Positions 22,881-38,050 of a DNA stretch of 51,621 bases are shown in pieces. Numbering within the stretch: position 1 is the first letter of the stretch; every line of letters begins with the position of its first letter. The stretch comes from an uncultured Bacilli bacterium (GTDB lineage Bacteria > Bacillota_I > Bacilli_A > RF39 > UBA660), in assembly GCA_947626055.1 (NCBI GenBank), contig CANQQP010000004.1, positions 1 through 51,621 on the forward strand. Direction: 5' to 3'. Position numbers and translations under genes: made by a program. The notes below the pieces were generated by a model, which searched no databases, had not been told where the DNA came from, and saw only the letters and a program-made list of their open reading frames with translations.

Positions 22881-23092
22881 AAAAAAACACATCCGCCAAA
22901 GGACGTGTTTAAACGTGGTACCACCTTATTTTAGTCTTAAAGTATTAACGCTACTAACGTGATATCTTACTTGCTTTCAGATATCCTGCTCCCTAGCTAC
23001 TTTCAATAAATCTTTTTATTAGTTTTCACCAACCACTAACTCTCTTTGAAAAAAAATTTATTTACTCCTCTAGTTCTCGGCATTTCTTCTAT
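22881..23092 (-). promoter_or_regulatory. T-box leader of valS
   Basis: The minus strand contains the T-box core AGGTGGTACCACG (about 22914-22926), followed by a 10-bp terminator stem (22885-22894 with 22901-22910) and a T run. Upstream, a Stem I can be drawn: AATAAAT pairs with ATTTATT, the 5' side carries AGTA and the 3' side GAA, as in a specifier loop with loop E. A GTA triplet (22998-23000) directly after GAAA is the probable valine specifier. The distal part shows the GGTTGGTG element. Uncharged tRNA-Val would favour the antiterminator. Confidence 0.92.
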
Positions 23093-35735: not shown

Positions 35736-36179
35736 TTATGTAGAACAATTACTTGAAACAGAACTGCCTGATGATACAGAACTATCTTCTTTTTTTCCTA
35801 ACTCTTCTAATGTTTTACCATTTATAACATAAGTTCCATTTGTTAAATATATTGTATATTTTGCTTTATTATTTGATTCAAAAGATATCTTTACCATTCC
35901 GCTATAACCAGCACTTTTCATATCTTTTTCTAATGGTAATTCTTCCAAAGTATAACATGTTTTTGGAGCCGCTGAATTAACAGCATTTTCAGCATATTGA
36001 GTTTGGGCTGCTTTTATAATAGATTCAGCTTCAGTAATAAAAGCATTTTTTTTAGCATTCTCCATAATTCTTAAAACACTAGGCATAGCTAATAATATTA
36101 ATATTGATAAAATAACAATTACAGCTAATAATTCTATTAAAGTAAAGCCATTTCTATTTTTAAACTTACTATATTCCAT
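35736..36179 (-). CDS. Type IV prepilin / ComGC-like pseudopilin (copy 1)
   Basis: A 147-residue prepilin. A 10-residue leader ends in Gly, then the canonical 'FTLIELLAVIVILSILILL' helix with Glu at +5. The cleavage point is G/F. The C-terminal domain has two Cys and a Ser-rich tail ('SSVSSGSSVSSNC'). The first 45 mature residues are almost identical to those of the 36265 gene, whereas the C-terminal domains are unrelated. Its own promoter lies at 36215-36242; the ribosome binding site AAAGGG is rather far from the ATG. Confidence 0.9.
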   Translation of the reverse strand: MEYSKFKNRNGFTLIELLAVIVILSILILLAMPSVLRIMENAKKNAFITEAESIIKAAQTQYAENAVNSAAPKTCYTLEELPLEKDMKSAGYSGMVKISFESNNKAKYTIYLTNGTYVINGKTLEELGKKEDSSVSSGSSVSSNCST

Positions 36180-36214
36180 TTAATATCTAACCCTTTCCAC
36201 TATTCCATTACTAT

Positions 36215-36242
36215 TCTATATCACCTAGAAAGCTAAAGTCAA
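36215..36242 (-). promoter_or_regulatory. Promoter of the 35736 prepilin gene
   Basis: TTGACT (36237-36242), 16-nt spacer, TATAGA (36215-36220), in the gap between the two prepilin genes. Confidence 0.55.
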
Positions 36243-36264
36243 TCATTTATGAAAATAATTTTAT

Positions 36265-36741
36265 TTATTTACTATTTGCAGTGGCAATGCCAGTATTATC
36301 CAATTTTCTATAATCAGCGCTATTATTACTATTTACCGTTATTGTATTGCCATTTTTATTACAAGAACCCGTACAAGAATAATAAGCGCCATTATTAAAA
36401 GCAGAATTGTGCTTAATATTATTATTATCAACTTTAATATAAATATCATAAGATTTCATATTTCCACCATCAATATCCAATTCACAAGGATTATTACTTG
36501 TACAATCGCCAGTTGATCCATTTTTGAAATGTAAAACATCATTGATATTTCCTGTTGTAGCTTTTTCCAAATATTTAGTTTGGGCTGCTTTTAAATATGA
36601 TTCTTTTTCAATTTCAAAAGTATTCTTTTTAGCATTCTCCATAATTCTTAAAACACTAGGCATAGCTAATAATATTAATATTGATAAAATAACAATAACT
36701 GCCAATAATTCAATTAATGTAAAACCTTTTTTATTATACAT
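36265..36741 (-). CDS. Type IV prepilin / ComGC-like pseudopilin (copy 2)
   Basis: A 158-residue prepilin with the short leader 'MYNKKG' and the same 'FTLIELLAVIVILSILILL' helix. The C-terminal domain is Asn- and Gly-rich with paired Cys ('GDCTSNNPCELDIDGG' and 'YYSCTGSCNKNG'), suggesting disulfides and a surface-exposed fold. GTAGGTGA ribosome binding site and a strong promoter (36761-36789). It was probably duplicated together with the 35736 gene. Confidence 0.9.
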   Translation of the reverse strand: MYNKKGFTLIELLAVIVILSILILLAMPSVLRIMENAKKNTFEIEKESYLKAAQTKYLEKATTGNINDVLHFKNGSTGDCTSNNPCELDIDGGNMKSYDIYIKVDNNNIKHNSAFNNGAYYSCTGSCNKNGNTITVNSNNSADYRKLDNTGIATANSK

Positions 36742-37225: not shown

Positions 37226-37579
37226 TTAATCCTCAAAAAATTTATTTAAAGGTCTAGGAGTTGTCGGCCCTTTGGCTATAGAAGCCGGAGAAGCATTTTT
37301 AGTAGTTAATTCGGAAATAAACCCTAAAGCTTTTTGAGCCGTATTTATATGTTTTTGAATACTATCCATATCAACATTTTTAACCATTTGTGTTATCCCT
37401 TTAATGCCATTATTAGAGATAGTGTTATCGCTTATATATTCTTTCCAAGCATTACTATCCTCACCGTAAATGTCATATATTTCATAAAATTTTTGCCAAC
37501 TCATATTGCCATTTTTAATATATTTAACAAGTTCCGGATGTAAAGAAGCGAAACGTTTAAATTCTTCTTTTTTATTCAT
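37226..37579 (-). CDS. YlbD-like coat-type protein
   Basis: A 117-residue protein whose N-terminus 'FKRFASLHPELVKYIKNG', followed by 'MSWQKFYEIYDIYGED', fits the YlbD family, annotated as a putative spore coat protein in Bacillus. The C-terminus is Pro/Thr-rich. It is cotranscribed with the ylbE-like gene, and rpmF-ylbN-ylbM follow on the other side, which mirrors the Bacillus ylb order. Whether this organism sporulates cannot be told here; a coat role is doubtful without other sporulation genes. Confidence 0.8.
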   Translation of the reverse strand: MNKKEEFKRFASLHPELVKYIKNGNMSWQKFYEIYDIYGEDSNAWKEYISDNTISNNGIKGITQMVKNVDMDSIQKHINTAQKALGFISELTTKNASPASIAKGPTTPRPLNKFFED

Positions 37580-37633
37580 ACGACCACCTACTATATCATA
37601 TGTCTAAATGTTAAAATTATTATTAATTGTTGT

Positions 37634-37661
37634 TTGCAATTAGTAAAAACTATGCTATAAT
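37634..37661 (+). promoter_or_regulatory. Promoter of a candidate small RNA
   Basis: TTGCAA (37634-37639), 16-nt spacer ending in TGC, TATAAT (37656-37661): an extended -10 promoter reading away from ylbD, with no protein gene downstream on that strand before the convergent rpmF. Confidence 0.7.
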
Positions 37662-37667
37662 TAGATA

Positions 37668-37790
37668 TGAGGAAAGGCTATATAGTAAAAACAAATATCA
37701 ATCACATTTTGAGGGGTTTTGGTTGAAAGGAAAAACTCGCGAAAGCGAGCTCGTTGTTTTTACCCAAATATATAGTTGAGTACTCTTTTA
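37668..37790 (+). ncRNA. Candidate structured non-coding RNA, family not recognised
   Basis: Downstream of a good + strand promoter there is no open frame of note, but strong secondary structure. A long closing stem pairs 37678-37684 with 37769-37775 and 37685-37694 with 37754-37763 (17 bp in all) around a 5-nt bulge CCAAA. Inside are a hairpin CTCGC-GAAA-GCGAG with a GNRA tetraloop (37736-37749) and a 6-bp stem TCAATC/GGTTGA. TTTGG (37718-37722) could pair with the CCAAA bulge as a pseudoknot. GAGTACTC followed by TTTTATTTT may mark the 3' end. It lacks the signatures I know for SRP, tmRNA, RNase P or common riboswitches. Ends are approximate. Confidence 0.55.
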
Positions 37791-37849
37791 TTTTACTATT
37801 AAGTTGACAATTAATCAATTATTTAAAAATTAAAAAAATAGTCGATTGA

Positions 37850-38050
37850 CTATTTGGCATTTTCTTCTGTTTCTTCTTGCACTTTGATTACTTCTTTACC
37901 TTTATAGTAACCACACTTAGGACATGCACGATGTGGCATTATTGTCTCTCCACATTTTGGACATGATGTCATTGCATTCACTGTTTTTTTCAAATGAGTA
38001 CGACGCATTCTCTTTTTAGTTTTACTTGTTCTTCTAAATGGAACTGCCAT
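37850..38050 (-). CDS. rpmF: Ribosomal protein L32
   Basis: A 66-residue large-subunit protein: N-terminal '[19 protein letters not shown]' and zinc ribbon CPKC (30-33) and CPKC (43-46). The start is the ATG at 38050 behind AAGGAG; the frame is open a few codons further upstream but without a ribosome binding site. The acidic tail ('EETEENAK') is a little longer than in Bacillus. It follows ylbN by 4 nt in the conserved ylbN-rpmF operon. Confidence 0.96.

What the first reader, a model, noticed from the sequence alone, without database searches (positions are those of the whole stretch)
37634..37800. Unassigned structured RNA gene between ylbD and rpmF
An extended -10 promoter reads into about 120 nt with no frame but with a 17-bp closing stem, an asymmetric CCAAA bulge, a GNRA-capped hairpin, an additional 6-bp stem and a possible TTTGG/CCAAA pseudoknot. 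It lies antisense to neighbouring genes and matches no common RNA that I recognise. The stem 5' arm could also pair with TTTTACTAT further down, so switching is possible.
Basis: partly seen in the sequence, partly recalled or inferred. Interest (0 to 1): 0.62.

Follow-up and report, generated by a model that had tools for sequence, protein, structure and literature searches.

The report
Two-armed small RNA with mapped partners
The stretch is a real small-RNA gene of an uncultured gut Bacilli genus; it holds up two unchanging sequence loops, one exactly complementary to the very start of a regulator gene's mRNA and one to a second small RNA, so it looks like a switchboard between two control circuits rather than a switch that refolds itself.

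Summary
The finding holds: a stand-alone RNA gene of about 120 nt (37669-37789, +) lies between ylbD and rpmF, with a conserved extended -10 promoter, a closing stem and a T-tract. Rfam has no match. I found it in 8 genomes of one genus of uncultured Bacilli and in no other genus. In two distant copies the stem has unrelated sequence but the same architecture, including a 3'-side bulge. What never changes is the loop: AUAUCAAUCACA, 3-8 nt, GGGGUUUUGG. The first half is the exact reverse complement of TGTGATTGATAT, which occurs exactly once elsewhere in each of 9 genus genomes, always at the start codon of the same small Cro/CI-type regulator gene, where it is the longest invariant run. The second half is complementary over 11-14 nt to an exposed CAACCAAAACCCCC of another unrecorded small RNA found across the family. 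The same GGGGUUUUGG also lies upstream of the start codon in toxin-like peptide genes and a few other genes. Best reading: a trans-acting base-pairing RNA that shuts the regulator mRNA and mimics the targets of (sponges) the second RNA; a shared operator-like box suggests feedback. No expression data exist. The pseudoknot and refolding ideas are not supported.

The parts
37633..37647 (+). operator-like box TTTGC-N5-GTAAA over the -35 element of the small RNA
   Evidence: in 8/8 copies; the same box lies between the divergent regulator genes in 7 of 9 genomes, out of only 3-9 copies per genome
37634..37661 (+). sigma-A type promoter, TTGCAA - TG n TATAAT
   Evidence: conserved in 8 genomes
37669..37789 (+). 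small RNA gene (here called sRNA-C); predicted start about 37668, end at the T-tract after CTC
   Evidence: start and end are predicted, not mapped
37678..37694 (+). 5' arm of closing stem CTATATA GTAAAAACAA
37754..37775 (+). 3' arm of closing stem TTGTTTTTAC + bulge CCAAA (37764-37768) + TATATAG
37695..37706 (+). invariant loop half A, AUAUCAAUCACA: exact complement of the 5' end / start-codon region of the HTH68 mRNA
   Evidence: invariant in 8/8 copies; complement in 9/9 HTH68 genes
37713..37726 (+). invariant loop half G, GGGGUUUUGG(UUGA): complementary to CAACCAAAACCCCC of sRNA-B
   Evidence: first 10 nt invariant in 8/8; duplex -21.5 to -26.5 kcal/mol in 6 genomes
37736..37749 (+). accessory hairpin CTCGC-GAAA-GCGAG, covarying but absent from G007 and G008
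37783..37789 (+). CTC that can pair with the 5' GAG, followed by TTTT: likely 3' end
   Evidence: in G007 and G008 the closing stem runs straight into T5-T6
37226..37579 (-). ylbD (YlbD_coat), divergent neighbour
37853..38050 (-). rpmF (ribosomal protein L32), convergent neighbour

Best explanation
sRNA-C is a trans-acting, base-pairing small RNA of about 120 nt. A closing stem that probably doubles as its terminator presents a loop with two antisense modules. Module A (AUAUCAAUCACA) pairs with the first nucleotides of the mRNA of a 65-68 aa Cro/CI-type regulator (HTH68). By promoter spacing that mRNA starts at about GUGAUUGAUAUG, so the duplex covers the 5' end, the only Shine-Dalgarno-like bases and the start codon, and would block translation. 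Module G (GGGGUUUUGG) copies the sequence found before the start codon of several mRNAs that are complementary to the exposed CAACCAAAACCCCC of a second, family-wide small RNA (sRNA-B). sRNA-C would thus titrate sRNA-B and free those mRNAs, or be titrated by it. A shared TTTGC-N5-GTAAA box at the sRNA-C promoter and between HTH68 and its divergent partner HTH119 suggests that one of these regulators controls sRNA-C, closing a feedback loop. Shown here: the gene, its conservation, and the exact and co-conserved complementarities. Inferred: transcription, duplex formation in cells, sign of regulation, and who binds the box.
For: 8 copies in one genus with the same promoter and architecture; stem kept through compensatory and wholesale sequence change while the loop halves are invariant. 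TGTGATTGATAT occurs exactly once outside the sRNA-C locus in each of 9 genomes, always at the HTH68 start, against about 0.26-0.34 copies expected per genome. It is the longest invariant run (13 columns) in the HTH68 alignment, where genomes are down to about 70% identical and -35, spacer and codons vary. HTH homologs of other genera, which lack sRNA-C, start differently, most with an ordinary Shine-Dalgarno sequence. sRNA-B: promoter, two hairpins, invariant unpaired CAACCAAAACCCCCUGAAG, terminator. GGGGTTTTGG(TT) is strongly enriched over control in the genus and lies upstream of start codons in 17 toxin-like loci and in L060/L124, L077 and L080. Exact shared box in G006: TTTGCAATATGTAAA at both loci and nowhere else.
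Against: No transcript data. sRNA-B was not found in G007 and G008 even with 3 mismatches, although their sRNA-C keeps the G loop; G008 is 67% complete and sRNA-B sits at assembly breaks, but this weakens the sponge step. In isolation the folded RNA hides about half of each loop (unpaired probability 0.35-0.74). The A-module duplex is modest (-14.9 kcal/mol in most genomes). The shared box was noticed after the fact and is missing in two HTH intergenic regions.
Confidence: 0.66

Rival explanations
1. Only one arm is real: sRNA-C is an antisense regulator of HTH68, and the GGGGUUUUGG half does something else (protein binding, structure, or other mRNAs); the match to sRNA-B is a shared-motif coincidence.
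For: G loop is kept in G007 and G008, where no sRNA-B was found. sRNA-B exists in many genera without sRNA-C.
Against: 11-14 nt perfect complementarity to a conserved exposed site, in a genus where the same motif is multiplied upstream of start codons; about 0.09 copies of GGGGTTTTGGTT expected per Mb.
Confidence: 0.2
2. Shared DNA operator: ATATCAATCACA/TGTGATTGATAT is a protein-binding DNA site of an HTH regulator at both loci, not an RNA-RNA pairing site.
For: The 12-mer overlaps the predicted start of the HTH68 transcript, where an autorepressor could bind.
Against: The 12-mer is not palindromic; in sRNA-C it lies about 26 nt inside the transcript, in the loop of a conserved hairpin; a better operator candidate (TTTGC-N5-GTAAA) exists at both promoters; it covers exactly the 5' end and start codon in the antisense sense.
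Confidence: 0.1
3. Ligand- or temperature-responsive structured RNA (pseudoknot or switching helix).
For: Stable fold, possible UUUGG/CCAAA pairing in six close copies, alternative pairing ATAGTAAAA/TTTTACTAT.
Against: Both alternative partners are absent in G007 and G008; no downstream ORF on the strand; invariant parts are the antisense modules.
Confidence: 0.03
4. Decayed remnant or antisense part of the toxin-like peptide element, kept by chance.
For: Shares GGGGTTTTGGTT with the toxin leaders.
Against: No other similarity to the leader, no peptide, different promoter, unique locus, conserved in 8 genomes.
Confidence: 0.02

Closest known systems
RosA, sponge RNA for RoxS/FsrA in Bacillus subtilis (PMC8464778 section 2.2.4)
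   Same: Stand-alone small RNA of a Bacilli genome whose G-rich stretch is complementary to the C-rich seed of another small RNA, imitating its mRNA targets; under transcription-factor control (CcpA there, an unknown HTH box here).
   Different: No sequence or locus similarity was seen by eye and RosA was not compared computationally; RosA is 92-225 nt with three G-rich regions; sRNA-C has a second invariant module aimed at a regulator mRNA.
DicF/DicA-DicC region of E. coli Qin prophage (PMC10448788 found; details from own knowledge)
   Same: A small RNA wired to a divergent pair of Cro/CI-type regulators.
   Different: DicF is processed from a long operon transcript and does not, as far as I know, pair with the dic regulator mRNAs; sRNA-C has its own promoter at a distant locus.
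Trans-encoded base-pairing small RNAs that occlude the ribosome-binding region (e.g. SR1, FsrA, RoxS; PMC8464778)
   Same: Short, own promoter, terminator-like end, exposed antisense stretch against a translation start.
   Different: Target here has a predicted 5' leader of about 9-11 nt or is leaderless, so the pairing site is the very 5' end.
Type I antitoxin RNAs (for sRNA-B and the 23-aa peptides, not for sRNA-C)
   Same: sRNA-B is complementary to the leader, just before the Shine-Dalgarno, of multi-copy small hydrophobic peptide genes.
   Different: Encoded in trans at one locus, found in genera without exact GGGGTTTTGGTT leaders; no toxicity tested.

Membership tests
Any Rfam 15 family | Match at or above the gathering score | tested here: not met
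   no match in this region at gathering; best relaxed match 19.5 bits against a cut-off of 80
Trans-acting base-pairing sRNA | Own promoter and terminator-like end, no conserved ORF | tested here: met
Trans-acting base-pairing sRNA | Conserved antisense stretch with co-conserved site at the translation start of a distant gene | tested here: met
Trans-acting base-pairing sRNA | Expressed, and changes target level | not testable with these tools
   needs RNA-seq and reporters
sRNA sponge (RosA-like) | Complementary to the seed of another sRNA, same sequence as that sRNA's mRNA targets | tested here: met
   met in 6 of 8 genomes, sRNA-B not found in two
sRNA sponge (RosA-like) | Sequestration or decay of the partner sRNA in cells | not testable with these tools
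   experiment needed
Cis-acting leader / riboswitch | Downstream gene on the same strand | tested here: not met
   rpmF is convergent, ylbD divergent
Type I antitoxin encoded opposite its toxin | Overlapping toxin ORF on the other strand | tested here: not met
   only ylbD and rpmF beside the RNA, no small hydrophobic ORF in the gap

The most novel reading that the evidence does not exclude
A two-armed hub RNA: one loop silences the start of a Cro/CI-type regulator mRNA with an ultrashort leader, the other titrates a family-wide small RNA (itself unrecorded) that controls multi-copy toxin-like peptides, and the regulator pair in turn controls the hub's promoter. This would be a closed transcription-factor/RNA feedback circuit coupled to a sponge, in an uncultured reduced-genome gut lineage.
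Probability: 0.35. Interest if true: 0.72.

Novelty: new member of a known kind. Interest (0 to 1): 0.55.

Why it matters
Small-RNA regulation is unmapped in this uncultured gut lineage: one library search for RF39 (my guess at the lineage) with small RNA returned only an unrelated stool-microbiome paper. Here comparative sequence alone names the RNA, its likely mRNA target, a partner small RNA and a candidate controlling operator, so each link can be tested in a laboratory host. It also gives a case of an antisense site at the very 5' end of an mRNA with an ultrashort leader, and adds to the few stand-alone sponge RNAs known in Gram-positive relatives.

Tried and rejected
Rfam at gathering and relaxed thresholds: nothing (sRNA-B). 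Exact core pattern in 291 family genomes and in GTDB 220 contigs: only the genus, plus single chance hits in Acinetobacter, a Desulfobacteraceae MAG and Akkermansia with unrelated flanks. Core pattern in viral contigs: none. Automatic consensus structure on the 8-copy alignment gave only 4 pairs because the stems of G007 and G008 do not align; I counted helices by hand instead. The model was then used mainly as a sequence model and found nothing outside the genus. L007 and L008, weak DNA hits, are chance. rpmF loci of other genera: ORF lists suggest short gaps beside rpmF, but these gaps were not screened one by one for other RNAs. The pseudoknot, switching and toxin-remnant readings were considered and set aside as above. 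Whole-length duplex scores of sRNA-B with toxin leaders mix in loose pairing and are not used as evidence.

Full report
THE THING ITSELF. The window is contig C4 of a MAG of about 1.05 Mb (G000). Near relatives in the record titles are 'uncultured Bacilli bacterium' isolates named Lapin, presumably rabbit gut. Between ylbD (37226-37579, -; Pfam YlbD_coat) and rpmF (37853-38050, -; Ribosomal_L32p) the + strand carries an extended -10 promoter. It is followed by a stem-closed RNA of about 120 nt ending GAGTACTCTTTT. I call it sRNA-C.

CHANCE OR NOT. The single-sequence fold is only moderately better than shuffles (z -2.3). Comparison settles it. DNA search found five good homologs in the genus (77-96% identity). 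A core pattern added G007 and G008, which DNA search had missed or barely caught. In those two the stem has entirely different letters (GAGTTAAG/CTTAACTC; GAACAGTT/AACTGTTC) yet the same plan: lower helix, 3'-side bulge, upper helix, T-tract. In the other six one pair changed on both sides (G001, U-A to C-G) and one became G-U (G005). The accessory hairpin covaries in G006 and G002 and is missing in G007 and G008. No reading frame is shared. G004 has no detected copy, but its assembly also yields no rpmF match. Outside the genus neither the core pattern (291 family genomes) nor the model R1 found it, and no Rfam family matches.

WHAT NEVER CHANGES. In all 8 copies the loop reads ATATCAATCACA, 3-8 nt, GGGGTTTTGG. 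Invariance of loop letters while the stem turns over is what a base-pairing RNA shows, so I searched for complements in the 9 genus genomes.

ARM A. The complement TGTGATTGATAT occurs, besides sRNA-C's own opposite strand, exactly once per genome in 9 of 9 genomes. Expectation is about 0.3 per genome, from the reversed-pattern control at one mismatch (112 hits in 9 genomes over 37 sequences) and from base composition (0.26 per Mb). Every one of these is the start of the same gene: -35 TTGnnn, 17 nt, TATAAT, 5 nt, TGTGATTGATATG. It encodes a 65-68 aa Cro/CI-type protein (HTH_19/HTH_3), divergent from a 118-119 aa HTH protein and convergent with a gene that reads as ssb (ssb by eye). In the MAFFT alignment of about 480 columns, with pairs down to about 70% identity, the longest invariant run is precisely TGTGATTGATATG; the next is 8. 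With the usual 6-nt gap the transcript would begin at G of GTGATTGATATG: an ultrashort leader, or a leaderless GUG start, since GTG-ATT-GAT-ATG is in frame. Homologs of this HTH in other genera do not carry the 12-mer. Duplex -14.9 to -19.6 kcal/mol; shuffled loops reach it in 0-6 of 500 (20 of 500 in G008). All nine sites are one inherited site, so the count is not nine independent events. The argument rests on the exact match falling on a start codon in the antisense sense, and on both partners holding their longest invariant run there.

ARM G. CCAAAACCCC is enriched over its control in the genus, and GGGGTTTTGGTT is enriched family-wide. The sites fall into three groups. (i) sRNA-B: a second small RNA with TTGACA-type promoter, two hairpins (the first covarying between genera), unpaired CAACCAAAACCCCCUGAAG and a terminator. 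It is found in seven genus genomes (G000-G006) and in many other genera of the family, with no Rfam match. (ii) The leader of a multi-copy gene for a 22-25 aa hydrophobic peptide such as MKKLLVILKVIIIIKILNILKNI, with GGGGTTTTGG just before the Shine-Dalgarno sequence (five in G006, including those fetched). (iii) Other genes with GGGGTTTTGG two nucleotides before ATG: L060/L124, L077, L080. So sRNA-C's G loop looks like a copy of sRNA-B's mRNA sites on an RNA without an ORF. Pairing is 14 nt in G000, G003, G005 and (with one G-U) G001, and 12-13 nt in G006 and G002.

CONTROL OF sRNA-C. The -35 region carries TTTGC-N5-GTAAA, identical (TTTGCAATATGTAAA) in six copies and TTTGCAATTAGTAAA in G000 and G003. 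That box occurs 3-9 times per genome, yet one copy lies in the roughly 110-bp gap between the divergent HTH genes in 7 of 9 genomes. By my estimate one specific gap would catch one with probability below 0.001 per genome. In G006 the two 15-mers are exact and the only such copies. I noticed the box in G006 first and then counted, so treat it as a strong lead.

HOW IT WOULD WORK. When the HTH box is free, sRNA-C is made (inferred). Arm A covers the HTH68 start (inferred from exact complementarity). Arm G occupies sRNA-B and relieves its targets, or the reverse (direction unknown). Whether sRNA-B represses or activates is not shown; its site lies upstream of or over the Shine-Dalgarno region, so repression is the default.

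WEAK POINTS. There is no expression evidence. sRNA-B is not seen in G007 or G008, though their G loop is intact. Self-folding partly hides both loops. Ends of the RNA are predicted; the internal hairpin followed by GTTGTTTTT is terminator-like and could give a shorter form of about 95 nt.

VERDICT. The most useful content is not its fold but its two invariant antisense loops. It belongs to a known kind (trans-acting base-pairing RNA; sponge like RosA, PMC8464778), as a new, unrecorded member with an unusual pairing of partners.

Noticed in passing
L067 1437-1541 (+); L113 (G000), L112, L114-L123, L168-L174, L182, L183, L185, L187, L189: sRNA-B, an unrecorded small RNA conserved across the family, with invariant unpaired CAACCAAAACCCCCUGAAG between two hairpins and a terminator; no Rfam match.
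   Followed up: partly
L067 1508-1575 and 1753-1810; contig ends in G000:C31, G002:C75, G006:C83, G001:C47, G005:C55, G015:C22: The sRNA-B 3' end/terminator (CCCCCTGAAG..stem..TTTTTGT..AAGGGTTTGCGAG) is duplicated nearby and sits at contig ends, as if mobile elements integrate there.
   Followed up: no
L065, L072 (G000), L062-L064, L070, L071, L073-L075, L078, L081, L126, L129, L131-L133: Multi-copy element for a 22-25 aa hydrophobic peptide with a conserved leader; the 5' end AAGTGCTA..GCATCTAC is complementary to the 3' end GTAGATGC..TAGCACTT and CATCTAC also to GTAGATG at the Shine-Dalgarno: resembles a type I toxin mRNA with fold-back control. No Pfam or NCBIfam match.
   Followed up: partly
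L065/L072 upstream of the peptide gene; HTH intergenic region of L097: Peptide-gene promoters carry a palindrome GTC-N7-GAC (CGTCAAAATTTGACG) at the -35; the HTH68/HTH119 gap holds a similar TGTCGAAAGTTGACA, so the same regulators might control both.
   Followed up: no
L060, L124 (about 500-aa protein), L077, L080: Unrelated genes with GGGGTTTTGG two nucleotides before ATG: candidate further targets of sRNA-B.
   Followed up: no
L009 about 1355-1385 (G008, ylbD start): In G008 the ylbD ribosome-binding region GGTGATTGATATG is complementary to 11 nt of loop A; not so in G000.
   Followed up: no
window 35736-36741 (-): Two tandem prepilin-like ORFs with nearly identical N-termini (GFTLIELLAVIVILSILILLAMPSVLRIMENAKKN).
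   Followed up: no
window 22896-23087 (-): T-box leader, 132.9 bits.
   Followed up: no
L065 223-1197 and 2199-2972 (-): ORFs that read like SpoIIP and the germination protease GPR next to a peptide element, so the lineage may keep sporulation genes (by eye).
   Followed up: no
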